In this document: positions 20,732 through 26,181 of the stretch, piece by piece
How the letters are laid out: every line of letters starts with the position of its first letter
Position numbering within the stretch: position 1 is the first letter of the stretch
Assembly (NCBI RefSeq): GCF_001435315.1
Contig: NZ_AZGK01000003.1
Coordinates: 1-64,000, forward strand
Direction of reading: 5' to 3'
DNA from: Lentilactobacillus parabuchneri DSM 5707 = NBRC 107865
GTDB taxonomy: Bacteria; Bacillota; Bacilli; Lactobacillales; Lactobacillaceae
DNA length: 64,000 nucleotides
Notes under the pieces: model-generated
Databases searched by the model: none
What the model saw: the letters and a program-made list of their open reading frames with translations, nothing else
What the model was told of the DNA's origin: nothing
Position numbers and translations under genes: made by a program

Positions 20732-21505
20732 TTACTCTTCAATATCGTTGAAGAAGCTCAATAATTCTTCCTTTGTCAGGTTATCCTTTTGGTCGCCTGC
20801 AATGTCGTAGGTGATCTTTCCGTTATCCAGGACGATTAATCGATTTCCATACTTTAAAGCATCATCCAAATGGTGGGTGATCATCAAGCAGGTGAGGTGG
20901 TTTTGTGTGATTTGGTCGTTGGTCGCGGTCATCAGTTCCTGAGAGGTCTGGGGATCTAAGGCAGCGGTATGTTCATCCAACAATAAAATCTCAGGGCGCT
21001 TGATTGTTGCCATTAAGAAGCTAAGCGCCTGTCTCTGCCCACCTGATAATTTGCCGGTGGCGGTATTTAACCGGTGTTCCAGACCATTGTTCATAACGGA
21101 CGTAATCTCCTTGAACTTGTCCATGTGGGCTTTAAGATGCCTTGAACCAAAGCCACGGTGCTGACCGCGCTTTTCGGATAATAAGAGATTTTCGGCAACG
21201 GTCATTCGTGGGGCGGTGCCCATTTTGGGATCTTGGAAAACGCGGCTTAAAAAGCGGGTGCGATGTTCCACGGACATATTAGTGATGTCTTTGCCATTAA
21301 GTAGAATTTGACCTTCCGAAACGGGAATATTTCCTCCGATGACGTTAAATAACGTCGACTTTCCGGCACCGTTTGATCCCAGAATTGTCACAAAGTCACC
21401 GGGATAAATCGCCAAGTTAACGTGATCCATGATGTTAATTTGCTCCGGCGTTCCGTGATTGACGGTGACGACGATATCTTTTAACTCAAAGATTGGCTCA
21501 GTCAT
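20732..21505 (-). CDS. ABC importer ATPase (predicted tryptophan-type, COG1101)
   Basis: 257 residues. Walker A GSNGAGKST (about 43-51), signature LSGGQRQA (about 153-160) and Walker B with the unusual IILLLDEHTAALDP-type D-loop: His replaces Pro in the DEPT motif, which is characteristic of this ATPase subfamily. It overlaps the permease gene by eight bases, so the two are translationally coupled. With the permease and binding protein it makes the complete TrpXYZ-like importer, in which one ATPase type energises one permease type. The Trp specificity is known only as a prediction for streptococcal relatives. Confidence 0.88.
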   Translation of the reverse strand: MTEPIFELKDIVVTVNHGTPEQINIMDHVNLAIYPGDFVTILGSNGAGKSTLFNVIGGNIPVSEGQILLNGKDITNMSVEHRTRFLSRVFQDPKMGTAPRMTVAENLLLSEKRGQHRGFGSRHLKAHMDKFKEITSVMNNGLEHRLNTATGKLSGGQRQALSFLMATIKRPEILLLDEHTAALDPQTSQELMTATNDQITQNHLTCLMITHHLDDALKYGNRLIVLDNGKITYDIAGDQKDNLTKEELLSFFNDIEE

Positions 21506-22397
21506 GTTTGGTCATCCCCTTTGCTAAAGTATGGCGGATCCGGAAACGTTTCTCCAGCACTGGGAACATCATGAAGAGGGCCAGAACAATTGCTGAAATC
21601 AGGTTCAAGTCGTTGGCGTTGAAGCCCAACTTGAGAACAAGTAAGATGACAAACCGATACAGGATACTTCCGATCGTGACGGCAATCAGCCGCTGATTCA
21701 TGGTCAAATCACCAAAGACAACCTCACCAATGATAATTGAGGCTAAGGCAACCACGATGACGCCGATTCCCATGTTAACGTCGGCAAAGCCGTTATTTTG
21801 GGCCACCAGAGCACCACCAAGGCCAATCAGACCGTTGGAAACGCCGAGTCCCATAATTTGCATCGCATCAGTACTGATGCCAAGTGAGCGTGCCATGTTG
21901 GGGTTATCCCCAGTCGCAATGAAGGCTTGGCCCAAATTGGTTTGCAAGAAGTAGATAATCAGGGCAGTCACAATTGCGACCACAATGATGCCCAGAACGA
22001 CGCTGTCAAAGTAAGGTGGCAGTGATTCCAGGAAGTGGTTCTTCAACATTGTTGGCTTATCAAATAATGATAGGTTGGCACGGCCCATGATCCGTAGGTT
22101 GACGGAGTAAGCAGCGGTCATTACCAAGATTCCTGCTAATAACACAGGAATTTTTCCTTTAGTGTACAGCAGTCCCGTTACCAAGCCAGCCAGCATGCCG
22201 GCAATAAAAGCGATTAGGGTTGCAACCAGTGGGGAAGCGCCTGAATAAATTGCGGCCACACAGGCGGCAGCACCCATCGGGAAGGTGCCTTCAACGGTCA
22301 TATCGGGAAAATCAAGAATTCTGAAGGTGAGAAATAGGCCGATGCCGACGATCCCCCAAGTTAATCCTTGGCCGATTGCTGATACGATAATACTCAT
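21498..22397 (-). CDS. ABC importer permease (predicted tryptophan-type, COG4120)
   Basis: 299 residues with about eight to nine membrane segments, similar in fold to branched-chain amino acid (LivH-like) permeases: ILDFPDMTVEGTFPMGAA near residues 28-45, and ATGDNPNMARSLGIS near 160-175, where the cytoplasmic coupling helix contacts the ATPase. Its start overlaps the stop of the binding-protein gene by four bases (ATGA). Substrate inferred from the family only. Confidence 0.88.
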   Translation of the reverse strand: MSIIVSAIGQGLTWGIVGIGLFLTFRILDFPDMTVEGTFPMGAAACVAAIYSGASPLVATLIAFIAGMLAGLVTGLLYTKGKIPVLLAGILVMTAAYSVNLRIMGRANLSLFDKPTMLKNHFLESLPPYFDSVVLGIIVVAIVTALIIYFLQTNLGQAFIATGDNPNMARSLGISTDAMQIMGLGVSNGLIGLGGALVAQNNGFADVNMGIGVIVVALASIIIGEVVFGDLTMNQRLIAVTIGSILYRFVILLVLKLGFNANDLNLISAIVLALFMMFPVLEKRFRIRHTLAKGMTKHD

Positions 22398-23395
22398 TTA
22401 ATCAATTCTCCTTTTTCTTGGGCTTTCTTCAAAAGTGCTGCAGGAACTTTGATGCCCAACTTGTGCGCTTGTTTTTCATTGATGATCAATTTTCCATAAC
22501 GGAAGAATTTGATTGGTGTGGTGGCAGGCTTCTTCTTTCCTTTGAGGATCTGGCCACTCATCTTACCAGTTGCAACTCCCAATTTGTATTGGTCAATTCC
22601 ATACGTTGCAACACCACCTTGTTTAACCATGGTGTCAACGGCCGGAAAGACGGGTACCTTTGCGTTGTTTGCGGCTCCTACCAGCGTTTGCATCGCACCG
22701 GCAATGGTGTTATCGGTTGGAACGTAAATCGCGTCAACCGAACGAACGGCTTGTTCAGCAACTTGGGTTAAATCATTGGTATTAGCGATTGAGTAAGCTT
22801 TCAAACGAACATTTTCCTGTTTACATATTTTGACGAACATCTTATATTGGGCGACGGCGGAGTCATCGCTTGATGTGTAAATGATTCCTAATGTCTTCAT
22901 GTGAGGCATGAATTGCTTGATCAAGCCTAGTTGTTCTTTAAGTGGTGCTTGGTCGGAAACACCGGTGATGTTGCCACCGGGCTTGTTGTTATTTTTAACG
23001 AGGCCGGCGCCCTTTGGATCGGTGATGGCACCGAGGATGACAGGCTTATGGGTAATCGTATTTGCCAAAGCCTGGGCCGATGGGGTTGCAATTCCGATGG
23101 ACAGGTCTGCATCCTCATTGGCAAATTTGGTGCTCATTGTTTTCAAATTACTTTGGTCATTTTGGGCATTTTGAAAATCAATTTTGATGTTCTTGCCAGG
23201 GGTGTAGCCCTCTTCTTCAAGTCCGTGAATGATTCCTTTGTGGATGGCGTCCAGCGCTGGATGTGACATTAATTGAAGAATCCCAACGGTCGGCTTGGCC
23301 TGGGTCTTTTGTTTCTGATTCCCCTGAGCAAATGCGACGCCCAAAATCACGATTAACACAGCGATGACACCTGAAATTAAATATTTTTTCTTCAT
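22394..23395 (-). CDS. ABC importer substrate-binding protein (predicted tryptophan-type, COG2984)
   Basis: 333 residues from the ATG of MKKKYLISG, nine bases after GAGGGAG; the longer frame adds eight residues without support. The N-terminus is a hydrophobic signal/anchor (LISGVIAVLIVILGVAFAQG) with no lipobox Cys. The mature part matches the ABC_sub_bind/TrpX fold: VGILQLMSHPALDAIHKGI, IGIATPSAQALAN, ILGAITDPKGAGLV, VSDQAPLKEQLGLIK and IYVPTDNTIAGAM. It is the first gene of the operon and sits behind the structured leader at 23447-23672. Confidence 0.88.
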   Translation of the reverse strand: MKKKYLISGVIAVLIVILGVAFAQGNQKQKTQAKPTVGILQLMSHPALDAIHKGIIHGLEEEGYTPGKNIKIDFQNAQNDQSNLKTMSTKFANEDADLSIGIATPSAQALANTITHKPVILGAITDPKGAGLVKNNNKPGGNITGVSDQAPLKEQLGLIKQFMPHMKTLGIIYTSSDDSAVAQYKMFVKICKQENVRLKAYSIANTNDLTQVAEQAVRSVDAIYVPTDNTIAGAMQTLVGAANNAKVPVFPAVDTMVKQGGVATYGIDQYKLGVATGKMSGQILKGKKKPATTPIKFFRYGKLIINEKQAHKLGIKVPAALLKKAQEKGELIK

Positions 23396-23446
23396 AATTA
23401 CCGTCTCCCTCAATCTCAATGATTTTATTTAAAAAATTAATACGAA

Positions 23447-23486
23447 CAAAAACGAGCATTCCAGTCTGCCCAACCGAAATGCTCGT
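23447..23486 (-). terminator. Intrinsic terminator within the ABC importer leader
   Basis: ACGAGCATT and AATGCTCGT pair over a 17-base loop and are followed on the minus strand by TTTTTG. It lies about 50 bases before the first ABC gene and downstream of its promoter, so it is an attenuator rather than an end-of-gene terminator. Confidence 0.8.
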
Positions 23487-23706
23487 GATAAGTCGGCCTG
23501 CCGGAATCATCTGTACAGACCGTTCGTTTTCCGAAAGATTGCCGGTACAGATGCGTTCATGATCGCATGCTTAAGATCAAGTCGCATCTGTATCGATGTG
23601 ACTTGTTACCGGCTTTGCCAACTGCGATTAACAAGTGAACTCATAGCAATCTTTCCTTTCGTAGTAGAATACATTTAATTTTATATGATTGTTTCTGGTT
23701 CGTCAA
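23487..23706 (-). promoter_or_regulatory. Structured attenuator leader of the ABC importer operon
   Basis: The promoter on the minus strand is TTGACG (23701-23706), 17 bases, TAAAAT (23678-23683). In the transcript, bases 23533-23555 are complementary without a gap to three separate upstream segments: GAAAGATTGC (23646-23655, the leader ORF's RBS region), GCCGGT (23608-23613, at its stop) and ACAGATGCG (23583-23591). Part of the same segment, CATCTGTAC (23545-23553), can instead pair with GTACAGATG at 23508-23516. A terminator follows at 23447-23486. No T-box sequence (AGGGTGGNACCGCG) is present. Mutually exclusive pairing plus an ORF with a Trp codon suggests attenuation by translation or ligand. 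Confidence 0.65.
23606..23644 (-). CDS. Putative leader peptide MSSLVNRSWQSR
   Basis: A 12-codon open reading frame too short for ordinary gene calling. ATG is preceded by AAAGGAAAG at about nine bases. The single Trp codon lies at position 9, three codons before the stop. Its RBS and its last codons are both part of predicted RNA stems with 23533-23555, so ribosome position on this frame would change the leader fold. The predicted tryptophan specificity of the downstream transporter makes a Trp-sensing leader peptide reasonable, but one Trp codon alone is weak evidence. Confidence 0.45.
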   Translation of the reverse strand: MSSLVNRSWQSR

Positions 23707-23801
23707 TGTCTGAATCTGAGAATATTATGACAGTGTCATTTTGAGTTAACCGATTGGTAACTTATTCATGATATCCTGTTAGTGAAAGAGGGGGTTCATT
23801 C

Positions 23802-25026: not shown

Positions 25027-26181
25027 ATGAAAAACATGATTAAGCTCGTTGGTGTGTTGGCAGCCTTTGTTGGGCTCCTGTTTATTGCTAGTCCTCAACC
25101 AGCACAAGCCGCACACAACGGTTATCGGATTAAGGTTCTCAATACTTACTCAAATGATTTGCCACAGAATGCCTACCATACGAACTTGAAGTCCAAAGCT
25201 TCTATTTGGACAGCAAAACGTTATCCAAGTGACAAGCAAAAAGACTTTCAAAAGCGGCTTTATAGAGTTTCCAAGTTAAAAGGCGTGACGTTGTTTATCC
25301 AGAAAAAGGCCAGAGTGTATCATAAGCTCAAGAGCGCTATTTACTACTACGTGGCCGATCGGAATAATGGCTATCAGGGATGGGTTCGCTCCAGCGCATT
25401 AATCAAGGGATTCAGCCCTTACGGCTATCAAATTATCAAAGAGAAGTGGGGGAATCAGTCAGCAACATTTCATGCTAAGAACCCCAAACAAAATATTTAC
25501 ATCTGGAATTGGCGACATACCAAGAAACGGGCGAATGTAAAAAATTATCCTGGTGCCAACATGTATCGTTCAGAAACGGTAACCATGCTGCATAATAAGA
25601 AACAAAGTACTTACTACTACGTTAATATGCGACCAGACGGGAATTCGACAAAGGGCACTTCTGGATATGTTGCTGCTTCACAGGTCGCAGCCGGTCACAA
25701 TACCAACTACCCGGAGATTGAGTATACAAGTATCAATCAATTCACTGACAGCGCAGATTACAACAATTACATCCAACGCGGCAAGAAGCAAAAGCTGGCC
25801 AGAAAAATTGTTAAGCTGTTTCCCAACAGTTCGATTGATCTAGGGTTGTCTAAGATTGCTGCCTATAACTATGACACCTTTAACAATGACGTCGATGGTG
25901 ATCCTAATCCCATCAGTAAGAAGGGCTACACTGACATCAAGGCGTTCACAACCATTCAAAAGTGGCTGTATGCTCATGAAAAAGCATCCAACGCCACTAA
26001 ATTGGCTGGCATTAAACAGCTGCTTGATAAAGAAGGCTATACTGCAAGCAAGCGGGCCTCAATGTCTGGTTATAAACTTGGCATCCAAATTGTCAATAAT
26101 ATCAGTGGCTATCAAGAAGAAAGCGGGGATGCGACTCGTTGGAATGGATATGTGTTTATTTTGGGACGGGTTGATAATTAG
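25027..26181 (+). CDS. Secreted SH3-like protein, second of two tandem paralogues
   Basis: 384 residues, same layout as the preceding gene: signal peptide ending near AQA-AHN, SH3-like Tyr/Lys-rich stretches (SAIYYYVADRNNGYQGWVRSSAL), and a conserved C-terminal domain with KGYTDIKAFTTIQKWLYAH, IKQLLDKEGYTASK and LGIQIVNNI in common. The intergenic distance is 46 bases with its own AGAGGGGA RBS, and a terminator follows, so the two form an operon made by gene duplication. Divergence in the N-terminal half is greater than in the C-terminal half, suggesting different ligand surfaces on one scaffold. Confidence 0.75.
   Translation: MKNMIKLVGVLAAFVGLLFIASPQPAQAAHNGYRIKVLNTYSNDLPQNAYHTNLKSKASIWTAKRYPSDKQKDFQKRLYRVSKLKGVTLFIQKKARVYHKLKSAIYYYVADRNNGYQGWVRSSALIKGFSPYGYQIIKEKWGNQSATFHAKNPKQNIYIWNWRHTKKRANVKNYPGANMYRSETVTMLHNKKQSTYYYVNMRPDGNSTKGTSGYVAASQVAAGHNTNYPEIEYTSINQFTDSADYNNYIQRGKKQKLARKIVKLFPNSSIDLGLSKIAAYNYDTFNNDVDGDPNPISKKGYTDIKAFTTIQKWLYAHEKASNATKLAGIKQLLDKEGYTASKRASMSGYKLGIQIVNNISGYQEESGDATRWNGYVFILGRVDN

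What the first reader, a model, noticed from the sequence alone, without database searches (positions are those of the whole stretch)
23447..23706. Complex RNA leader with leader ORF upstream of a predicted tryptophan ABC importer
Bases 23533-23555 are contiguously complementary to three separate upstream segments, one of which is the RBS region of a 12-codon ORF containing a Trp codon, and part of the same segment can pair instead with 23508-23516 before an intrinsic terminator. Related importers in streptococci are usually predicted to be T-box controlled, but no T-box sequence is visible. A ribosome-dependent attenuator or a new riboswitch class would be noteworthy in a lactobacillus.
Basis: partly seen in the sequence, partly recalled or inferred. 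Interest (0 to 1): 0.75.

Follow-up and report, generated by a model that had tools for sequence, protein, structure and literature searches.

The report
Trp-codon leader-peptide attenuator before trpXYZ
The RNA in front of this lactobacillus's tryptophan importer carries a tiny gene with a tryptophan codon that very probably lets the ribosome itself switch the importer on when tryptophan runs short, and the same design recurs in relatives with histidine, tyrosine or phenylalanine codons, which would explain a published orphan 'riboswitch candidate'.

Summary
On the minus strand a 12-codon ORF (MSSLVNRSWQSR*, 23644-23606) and several competing helices lie between a promoter-like site and trpXYZ. 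All 22 Lentilactobacillus loci found have the ORF, and most of the helices show compensatory changes. The leader is a diverged, sub-threshold relative of the Rfam 'trpB motif' RF04312, published as a strong riboswitch candidate of unknown ligand. Of 96 RF04312 loci, 92 have just upstream an ATG-started ORF with a ribosome-binding site and a Trp codon near its end (shuffles: mean 0.72, maximum 3). Where the leader codons are not Trp, the gene differs too: 10 His leaders (one family) precede hisZ, 3 Tyr and 1 Phe leaders precede transporter genes, 5 Phe/Tyr leaders (one genus) precede TrpX-like genes. A conserved helix between the ORF end and P1, outside the Rfam model, supplies the missing segment. 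Best reading: ribosome-mediated transcription attenuation with exchangeable codons, a new variant of a known kind. No wet evidence exists; folding supports the early switch but not the last relay step in this genus.

The parts
23678..23706 (-). sigma-70-like promoter, TTGACG-17-TAAAAT
   Evidence: consensus scan, 10 of 12 matches; not tested
23648..23655 (-). ribosome-binding-site region of the leader ORF; 5' arm of the RBS helix, partner 23540-23533
   Evidence: sequence; paired in 94.8% of cells in 22 Lentilactobacillus leaders, two pairs with changes on both sides
23606..23644 (-). leader ORF MSSLVNRSWQSR*
   Evidence: sequence; an ORF ending WQ-x-R/Q in 22 of 22 congeneric loci
23618..23620 (-). 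Trp codon UGG, the proposed sensing codon
   Evidence: invariant in alignment A2; a Trp codon near the ORF end in 92 of 96 RF04312 loci
23607..23613 (-). ORF-end segment that can pair with segment 3 (23547-23541)
   Evidence: 94.2% of cells paired; the equivalent helix in other families 95.8%, no double changes
23595..23605 (-). segment 1, pairs with segment 2 (23588-23578)
   Evidence: 97.7% of cells paired, two pairs with double changes; the equivalent in the RF04312 set has p<=0.05 against shuffles in 127 of 135 leaders
23578..23592 (-). segment 2 (5' arm of P1 23592-23583; partner of segment 1 23588-23578)
23546..23555 (-). segment 3 (3' arm of P1; 23553-23545 is the 5' arm of the antiterminator)
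   Evidence: P1 94.9% of cells paired over nine pairs, two with double changes; the outermost pair, counted apart, 87.5% of 16 cells
23533..23540 (-). anti-RBS strand directly after segment 3
   Evidence: genus-specific
23508..23516 (-). segment 4, 3' arm of the antiterminator with 23553-23545
   Evidence: 88.7% of cells paired, two pairs with double changes, one pair unpaired in 10 of 22
23495..23521 (-). relay hairpin GGUCUG...CAGGCC, excluded by the antiterminator
   Evidence: 91.7% of cells paired, no pair with double changes
23472..23498 (-). alternative helix 23498-23493 with 23477-23472 that would block the apical part of the terminator
   Evidence: 94.7% of cells paired, one pair with a double change; predicted probability only 0.00-0.07 at equilibrium
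23446..23486 (-). intrinsic terminator (stem 23486-23452, then U run)
   Evidence: 98.0% of cells paired, seven of nine pairs with double changes
22394..23395 (-). trpX, tryptophan ABC transporter substrate-binding protein
   Evidence: NF041285 483.6 bits, cut-off 390
21498..22397 (-). permease (trpY by position)
   Evidence: PF02653
20732..21505 (-). ATPase (trpZ by position)
   Evidence: PF00005

Best explanation
This is a ribosome-mediated transcription attenuator that senses charged tRNA-Trp through a short leader ORF and controls the trpXYZ importer. The leader RNA has five ordered segments. Segment 1 lies at the end of, or just after, the ORF and pairs with segment 2. Segment 2 can instead pair with segment 3 (P1). 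Segment 3 can instead pair with segment 4 (antiterminator). Segment 4 otherwise forms the terminator with segment 5; in Lentilactobacillus it forms a relay hairpin that leaves the terminator free. When Trp-tRNA is scarce the ribosome waits at the UGG codon, leaves segment 1 free, 1:2 forms, segment 3 is released, 3:4 forms and transcription goes on. When Trp is ample the ribosome reaches the stop codon and covers segment 1, P1 forms and transcription ends before trpX. In this genus an extra helix between the leader RBS and the strand next to segment 3 is predicted to accompany P1 and close the leader RBS in the off state. Shown by comparison: the ORF, its codon, and the conserved competing helices. 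Inferred: ribosome stalling, direction of the switch, order of events.
For: (1) ORF: 92 of 96 RF04312 loci have ATG, RBS and a Trp codon in the last 10 residues, with the stop near P1; 50 sets of dinucleotide shuffles gave a mean of 0.72 and at most 3 of 96. Two of the four failures, L132 and L194, have the Trp ORF without an RBS by my rule. 71 of 80 TrpX loci, chosen by protein, have the ORF with an RBS, 70 of them with an ATG start. (2) Codon switching: 10 His-codon leaders precede hisZ (8 scanned, HisZ models best; L201 and L206 by eye), 3 Tyr and 1 Phe leaders precede transporter genes, 5 Phe/Tyr leaders precede TrpX-like genes (L254 by tblastn). (3) Helix 1:2, upstream of the Rfam model, beats shuffles at p<=0.05 in 127 of 135 leaders and has four pairs with double changes in 50 leaders of other families. 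P1 is paired in 99.6% of cells; the terminator has 10 of 12 covarying pairs. (4) Ribosome-masked folding of the window leader, cut just after segment 4: antiterminator 0.91 with the ribosome at UGG, 0.00 at the stop, 0.43 without a ribosome; P1 0.05, 0.99 and 0.55. In 59 distinct leaders ending W..W-x-x* helix 1:2 averages 0.35 with the A site on the second Trp codon and 0.08 one codon later; it falls by more than 0.1 in 28 and rises so in none. (5) The peptide body is poorly conserved (pN/pS 0.75 over 52 pairs), as expected if only the codon matters. (6) Both congeners without the leader also lack trpX.
Against: There are no expression, ribosome-profiling or mutant data. At equilibrium, once the whole relay hairpin of the Lentilactobacillus leader is made, it displaces the antiterminator in every ribosome state (means 0.03, 0.03, 0.00) and the blocking helix scores 0.00-0.07, so the last step must be kinetic or is wrong. 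Over 134 leaders the stalled state favours upstream pairing of the terminator arm over the stop state by more than 0.1 in only 42 (5 the other way); against the free state in 19 (1 the other way). Differences in the ORF body fall almost evenly on codon positions 1, 2 and 3 (78, 65, 83), so substitution pattern alone gives little coding signal. The antiterminator beats shuffles at p<=0.05 in 93 of 129 and the ORF-end/segment-3 helix in 77 of 135. Many leaders have a single Trp codon. His leaders come from one family (five genera) and Phe/Tyr leaders from one genus, so these are few independent switches. RF04312 does not reach its cut-off in the window (24 bits against 59) nor in any of 20 named Lactobacillaceae loci.
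Confidence: 0.87

Rival explanations
1. A true riboswitch: P1 and its flanks bind Trp or a related small molecule, and the ORF is incidental. This is how the trpB motif was first presented.
For: Published as strong riboswitch candidate SRC-39-1 with covarying hairpins (PMC11109978, passages). The nucleotides TGGCAA and neighbours around the Trp codon are very conserved. The ORF body shows little coding signal in its substitutions.
Against: An ORF with the pathway's codon precedes nearly every member examined, and the codon class changes with the gene. The near-invariance of segment 3 is explained by its having to pair with several partners. The same authors say a classic attenuator cannot be excluded.
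Confidence: 0.05
2. A TnaC-like arrest peptide: free Trp stalls the ribosome at the stop codon of ...WQSR*, which covers segment 1 and keeps the importer off.
For: WQS/N and an upstream LN are frequent: W+1 is Gln in 178 of 199 ORFs, N at -3 in 106. A stop-codon ribosome is predicted to favour P1.
Against: The conservation is of codons, not residues: Gln is CAA in 177 of 178 and Ser at +2 is AGC in 125 of 129, which points to RNA constraint. The peptide body is nearly unconstrained (pN/pS 0.75). His, Tyr and Phe versions lack the WQS motif.
Confidence: 0.06
3. Control by an RNA-binding protein (for instance TRAP-like) or by a T-box that was missed.
For: Trp genes in other Firmicutes use TRAP or T-boxes (PMC8546594 and PMC9382623, passages).
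Against: No T-box reaches the cut-off in the window, and none appears with E up to 10 in the leader. The only T-box in 20 of the 80 TrpX loci lies on the other strand (L050). The own genome has 47 T-box matches at E<=0.001, none at this leader.
Confidence: 0.02

Closest known systems
trpB motif, Rfam RF04312 (Narunsky et al. 2024, PMC11109978; outline and passages seen)
   Same: P1 hairpin, antiterminator in the right shoulder of P1, intrinsic terminator, upstream of amino-acid ABC transporters or trpB. Relatives range from 86.6 bits in a member of the window's own family (L115) to 33.8 bits in L015 and 24 bits in the window.
   Different: The window leader is below the family cut-off and has an extra relay hairpin and an RBS-blocking helix. 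The text passages on the motif mention no leader ORF, and the Rfam model begins at P1, so it holds no segment 1.
E. coli trp/his operon leader-peptide attenuators (recalled, and as described in passages of PMC8546594 and PMC9413887)
   Same: Short ORF with codons for the product amino acid, chain of mutually exclusive RNA helices, intrinsic terminator.
   Different: One more segment than the classic four (1:2, 2:3, 3:4, 4:5): the sensing codon lies upstream of segment 1 and the stop codon at its edge. No sequence relation claimed.
His-leader attenuators of Firmicutes (Bacillus cereus group, Peptostreptococcaceae with Lutispora, Erysipelotrichales; PMC9413887, passages)
   Same: His-codon runs upstream of his operons with terminator and antiterminator.
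   Different: Found per taxon; the passages seen do not link them to the trpB motif. Whether their RNAs share this architecture was not tested here.
Tryptophan T-box of S. suis trpXYZ (PMC9382623, passages)
   Same: Controls a homologous importer in response to Trp limitation through transcription termination.
   Different: Binds uncharged tRNA directly. No T-box is present here.
Listeria BCAA leader (PMC5864092, title and start of abstract in the listing; mechanism and the name Rli60 recalled) and Corynebacterium ilvB uORF (PMC11109978, passages)
   Same: Leader-ORF attenuation of amino-acid genes in Gram-positive bacteria.
   Different: Branched-chain amino acids; no relation to this leader was tested.

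Membership tests
Ribosome-mediated (leader-peptide) transcription attenuator | leader ORF with start codon and RBS | tested here: met
   window ORF; 22 of 22 congeners; 92 of 96 RF04312 loci against a shuffle mean of 0.72
Ribosome-mediated (leader-peptide) transcription attenuator | codons for the amino acid of the regulated pathway, placed near the end of the ORF | tested here: met
   Trp with trpX/trpB, His with hisZ, Tyr/Phe with transporter genes
Ribosome-mediated (leader-peptide) transcription attenuator | mutually exclusive helices ending in an intrinsic terminator | tested here: met
   pair counts, terminator
Ribosome-mediated (leader-peptide) transcription attenuator | position of the ribosome decides between the helices | tested here: inconclusive
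   clear for the window leader cut after segment 4, weaker over 134 leaders, lost at equilibrium once the relay hairpin is complete
Ribosome-mediated (leader-peptide) transcription attenuator | expression responds to starvation for the amino acid and needs leader translation | not testable with these tools
   needs reporter assays
RF04312 trpB motif | score at or above the gathering cut-off of 59 bits | tested here: not met
   24 bits in the window; 0 of 20 named Lactobacillaceae TrpX loci reach it
RF04312 trpB motif | P1 plus terminator with alternative pairing, upstream of amino-acid transport or trpB genes | tested here: met
T-box leader (RF00230) | match to the family model | tested here: not met
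   none at cut-off in the window and none up to E 10 in 23380-23800
Metabolite-binding riboswitch | direct ligand binding that alters structure | not testable with these tools
   needs in-line probing or ligand-dependent transcription in vitro

The most novel reading that the evidence does not exclude
The orphan 'trpB motif' class is one RNA chassis for leader-peptide attenuation whose specificity is changed by exchanging leader codons. It spans Lactobacillales (Trp, Phe/Tyr) and another class of the same phylum (His, Tyr, Phe; probably Clostridia, my inference), in bacteria known for T-boxes. In Lentilactobacillus it has gained a second layer: the leader's own ribosome-binding site is closed by the strand next to P1, so that the off state could lock itself.
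Probability: 0.7. Interest if true: 0.8.

Novelty: new variant of a known kind. Interest (0 to 1): 0.72.

Why it matters
More than 900 trpB-motif RNAs are on record as a strong riboswitch candidate with no ligand. If they are leader-peptide attenuators, the search for a ligand is misdirected and the question can be settled with one start-codon mutation. It also suggests that a bacterium rich in T-boxes runs a second tRNA-charging sensor for the same amino acid: this genome has a T-box in front of a cluster ending in trpB and the ORF-type attenuator in front of its Trp importer. The codon exchange gives a natural series for testing how attenuators change specificity, and leader codons may help predict the substrates of poorly annotated TrpX-like importers.

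Tried and rejected
T-box: rejected. Ligand riboswitch: kept as a low-probability rival. Arrest peptide: codon counts speak for RNA constraint rather than peptide constraint. RBS helix as the general principle: rejected; it beats shuffles at p<=0.05 in 11 of 13 Lentilactobacillus leaders but in 2 of 19 Levilactobacillus, 1 of 9 Secundilactobacillus and 12 of 141 RF04312-set leaders. Ribosome-masked folding as a general proof: only partly successful. An early alignment with mixed strands was useful for reading only and was redone with strands corrected. A first version of the blocking helix was out of register and was corrected.

Misses and dropped rows. Of 80 TrpX loci 9 failed the rule. By eye in that output, L076 and L087 have the ORF but no canonical RBS and L049 has it with an apparent CTG start. 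L090, L091, L094 and L096 have an ORF of 146-174 codons ending within 30 bases of trpX. L092 showed no leader; L097 starts 6 bases before the match. In 8 of the 71 the ORF lies 407-832 bases from the gene. The 96 RF04312 loci were chosen by score, but I had read the first 12 before setting the ORF rule; the four failures are L141 and L198 (Phe, Phe/Tyr) and L132 and L194 (Trp ORF, no RBS). Four places listed (G303, G342, G255, G269) were not fetched, and most weak matches were left as probable chance. Searches drew or fetched only part of their groups. Of 18 distinct places have His, 3 Tyr and 1 Phe leaders; L203, L207, L208 and L262 showed none. In one search, 10 of 144 leaders were left out beforehand for unusable terminator or locus coordinates. 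L223, L244, L248 and L249 were weak or wrongly placed hits. Alignment A3 holds 50 of the 78 leaders of that type, chosen by me, mostly of similar length, before counting. Leaders of related species are not independent in any of these counts.

Literature. 'trpB motif' is found in one paper. Searches listed no paper whose title or abstract start reports a Trp leader ORF in Lactobacillales or an ORF in the trpB motif; of these I looked inside PMC11109978, PMC8546594, PMC9382623 and PMC9413887 only. The library lacks most subscription papers, so this is no proof of absence.

Full report
WHAT IS THERE. The feature lies on the minus strand between a promoter-like site (23706-23678) and three genes: a substrate-binding protein that passes the curated TrpX cut-off (483.6 bits, cut-off 390), a BPD_transp_2 permease and an ABC ATPase. 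The leader contains a 12-codon ORF, MSSLVNRSWQSR*, with its Trp codon four codons before the stop. It folds much better than shuffled sequence (z -5.07) and ends in an intrinsic terminator.

CONSERVATION IN THE GENUS. A DNA search found the leader in 22 of 24 genomes of the genus, the own genome included, and all 22 have an ORF ending in WQ-x-R/Q. The two genomes without the leader also lack trpX. Named loci on contigs of the same lengths as several of these genomes are Lentilactobacillus. In the alignment of 22 leaders the helices are kept: RBS helix 94.8% of cells paired, ORF-end helix 94.2%, helix 1:2 97.7%, P1 94.9% (outermost pair, counted apart, 87.5%), antiterminator 88.7%, relay hairpin 91.7%, blocking helix 94.7%, terminator 98.0%. 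The number of covarying pairs exceeds all 500 shuffles in the first two structures; in the third, 10 of 500 shuffles reach it. The number of further pair types, a weaker measure, is reached by 10, 12 and 94 of 500. Weak points: the relay hairpin has no pair with a double change, and one antiterminator pair fails in 10 of 22 leaders.

RELATION TO A PUBLISHED ORPHAN. The only related Rfam hit is sub-threshold: RF04312, the trpB motif (24 bits in the window, 33.8 bits in L015). A search with this family in 395 genomes of the order gives 59 genomes over its cut-off, including one of the window's own family at 86.6 bits; at E<=1e-6 the own genome has no match. In 398 genomes of the phylum, 1 is over the cut-off. 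The family was published in 2024 as strong riboswitch candidate SRC-39-1, more than 900 examples in Firmicutes and Fusobacteria, ligand unknown. The authors note an antiterminator in the right shoulder of P1 and say that a classic attenuator cannot be ruled out (PMC11109978, passages).

THE LEADER ORF IS GENERAL. I took 96 RF04312 loci chosen by score. The model starts downstream of the ORF, so the test is independent of it. 92 of 96 have an ATG, a ribosome-binding site, and an ORF of 8-39 codons with a Trp codon in its last ten residues that stops near P1; 50 sets of dinucleotide shuffles gave on average 0.72 and at most 3. 94 of the 96 differ in the 100 bases upstream, though many are from related species. 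A TrpX homologue lies downstream in 87 of 96 (tblastn). From the other side, of 80 loci kept because they encode the closest TrpX homologues, 71 have the leader ORF with an RBS, 70 with an ATG; the nine failures are listed under Tried and rejected. No shuffle control was run for these 80.

THE CODON FOLLOWS THE PATHWAY. The exceptions are the strongest evidence. Two of the 96 have no Trp: L141 (...FFNNHFR*) before a sodium-dependent transporter and L198 (...RFYFSYFR*) before a TrpX-like protein. Searching their relatives gave ten leaders with three or more His codons in a row, each before hisZ. Eight of the ten genes were scanned and have HisZ models as best matches, six of them over the TIGR00443 cut-off, L199 and L257 below it; L201 and L206 are by eye. 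These ten come from five genera of one unnamed family. Three leaders are rich in Tyr (L204 before a sodium-dependent transporter; L256 and L258 before a permease-like gene with only weak NCBIfam matches). Four more are of the Phe/Tyr type (L236, L237, L253, L254); with L198 all five are from one genus. Four of the five TrpX-like proteins behind Phe/Tyr leaders were scanned and score 261-311 bits against NF041285; two behind Trp leaders of the same family score 371 and 393, the cut-off being 390. All of these except L226 are cut at the locus end, which costs some score. L254 has a TrpX-like match by tblastn. Five loci have trpB next: L127 and L214 by NCBIfam, L161, L120 and L130 by eye.

THE MISSING SEGMENT. 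RF04312 starts at P1. Just upstream, from the end of the ORF, lies a strand complementary to the 5' arm of P1. It beats shuffles at p<=0.05 in 127 of 135 leaders; P1 does so in 131 of 135, the antiterminator in 93 of 129, the ORF-end/segment-3 helix in 77 of 135. In 50 leaders of other families helix 1:2 is paired in 94.0% of cells with four covarying pairs, though one of its pairs fails in 27 of 50; P1 99.6%, terminator 90.2% with 10 of 12 covarying pairs; antiterminator 83.4% with one covarying pair and one pair that fails in 31 of 50. The end of the ORF can also pair with segment 3 (95.8%, no double changes). Segment 3 is nearly invariant, which fits a strand that must pair with several partners but also means it offers little covariation. 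The structures were drawn from one sequence, so the comparison with slid versions is biased in their favour, as the tool warns.

MECHANISM. With the terminator as 4:5 and the antiterminator as 3:4, expression needs segment 3 free, hence 1:2 formed. A ribosome waiting at the Trp codon leaves segment 1 open; one at the stop codon covers it. Folding with the ribosome footprint masked agrees for the window leader cut after segment 4 (antiterminator 0.91 stalled, 0.00 at stop, 0.43 free). Averaged over 22 congeners the values are 0.37, 0.02 and 0.20; between stalled and stop 12 rise and none falls by more than 0.05. In 59 distinct leaders that end W..W-x-x*, helix 1:2 averages 0.30 and 0.35 with the A site on the two Trp codons, 0.08 one codon after the second and 0.05 at the stop; from the second Trp codon to the next it falls by more than 0.1 in 28 and rises so in none (one search gave the same picture for 78 leaders with or without longer tails). 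In 16 leaders of the WQSR* type the decline is smoother. Against this, over 134 leaders the effect on the terminator arm exceeds 0.1 in the expected direction in 42 and in the opposite direction in 5, and in Lentilactobacillus the completed relay hairpin wins in all states at equilibrium. The final relay is therefore an inference that rests on kinetics.

CODON OR PEPTIDE. The ORF body is almost unconstrained as a peptide (pN/pS 0.75, 52 pairs; differences at codon positions 78, 65, 83). This gives little coding signal by itself, so the case for translation rests on start codon, RBS, frame and codon identity. After the Trp codon, Gln is CAA in 177 of 178 and Ser AGC in 125 of 129: conservation of bases rather than residues. 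This favours codon sensing over an arrest peptide but does not exclude some contribution of the nascent chain.

SAME CELL, TWO SENSORS. The genome holds 47 T-box matches at E<=0.001, 11 of them over the cut-off. One (92.8 bits, cut-off 93) lies in front of a cluster of four same-strand ORFs that ends in trpB. Reading UGG as its specifier follows a convention I recall. So the same organism appears to use a T-box for synthesis and the leader ORF for uptake.

NOVELTY. Leader-ORF attenuation is an old kind, and His leaders in Firmicutes were predicted in 2022 (PMC9413887, passages). I found no report of a Trp leader ORF in Lactobacillales or of an ORF in the trpB motif, within an open-access library only. 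I rate it a new variant of a known kind that would resolve a catalogued orphan.

Noticed in passing
L115 (downstream of the RF04312 hit): The longest ORF starting within 600 bases after this leader (86.6 bits) looks like a group II intron reverse transcriptase rather than trpX, perhaps an intron inserted between leader and importer (by eye).
   Followed up: no
L189:2-955 (-): A Trp leader (MHQVFKLQLQLNTRWQSH*) precedes a protein that looks like an oligopeptide-binding lipoprotein, suggesting peptide uptake as a Trp source (by eye).
   Followed up: no
L023 and L143 downstream of the leader: Trp leaders without a long same-strand ORF starting within 600 bases; in a related genome (L120) trpB follows directly. 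Possibly decayed operons or terminated small RNAs.
   Followed up: no
genome G125: L214, L235-L238: One genome carries five trpB-motif matches at E<=0.005: three with Trp leaders and two with Phe/Tyr leaders.
   Followed up: partly
L015:1592-1735: In this relative the hairpin that corresponds to the relay is itself followed by a T run, giving two tandem terminators; the window lineage may have turned the first into a relay.
   Followed up: partly
window:23802-24980 and 25027-26181: Two tandem ORFs on the plus strand that look like paralogous secreted proteins, divergent from the leader (by eye).
   Followed up: no
L050:724-949 (-): A T-box on the strand opposite to trpX, upstream of it; it must belong to another gene.
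   Followed up: no
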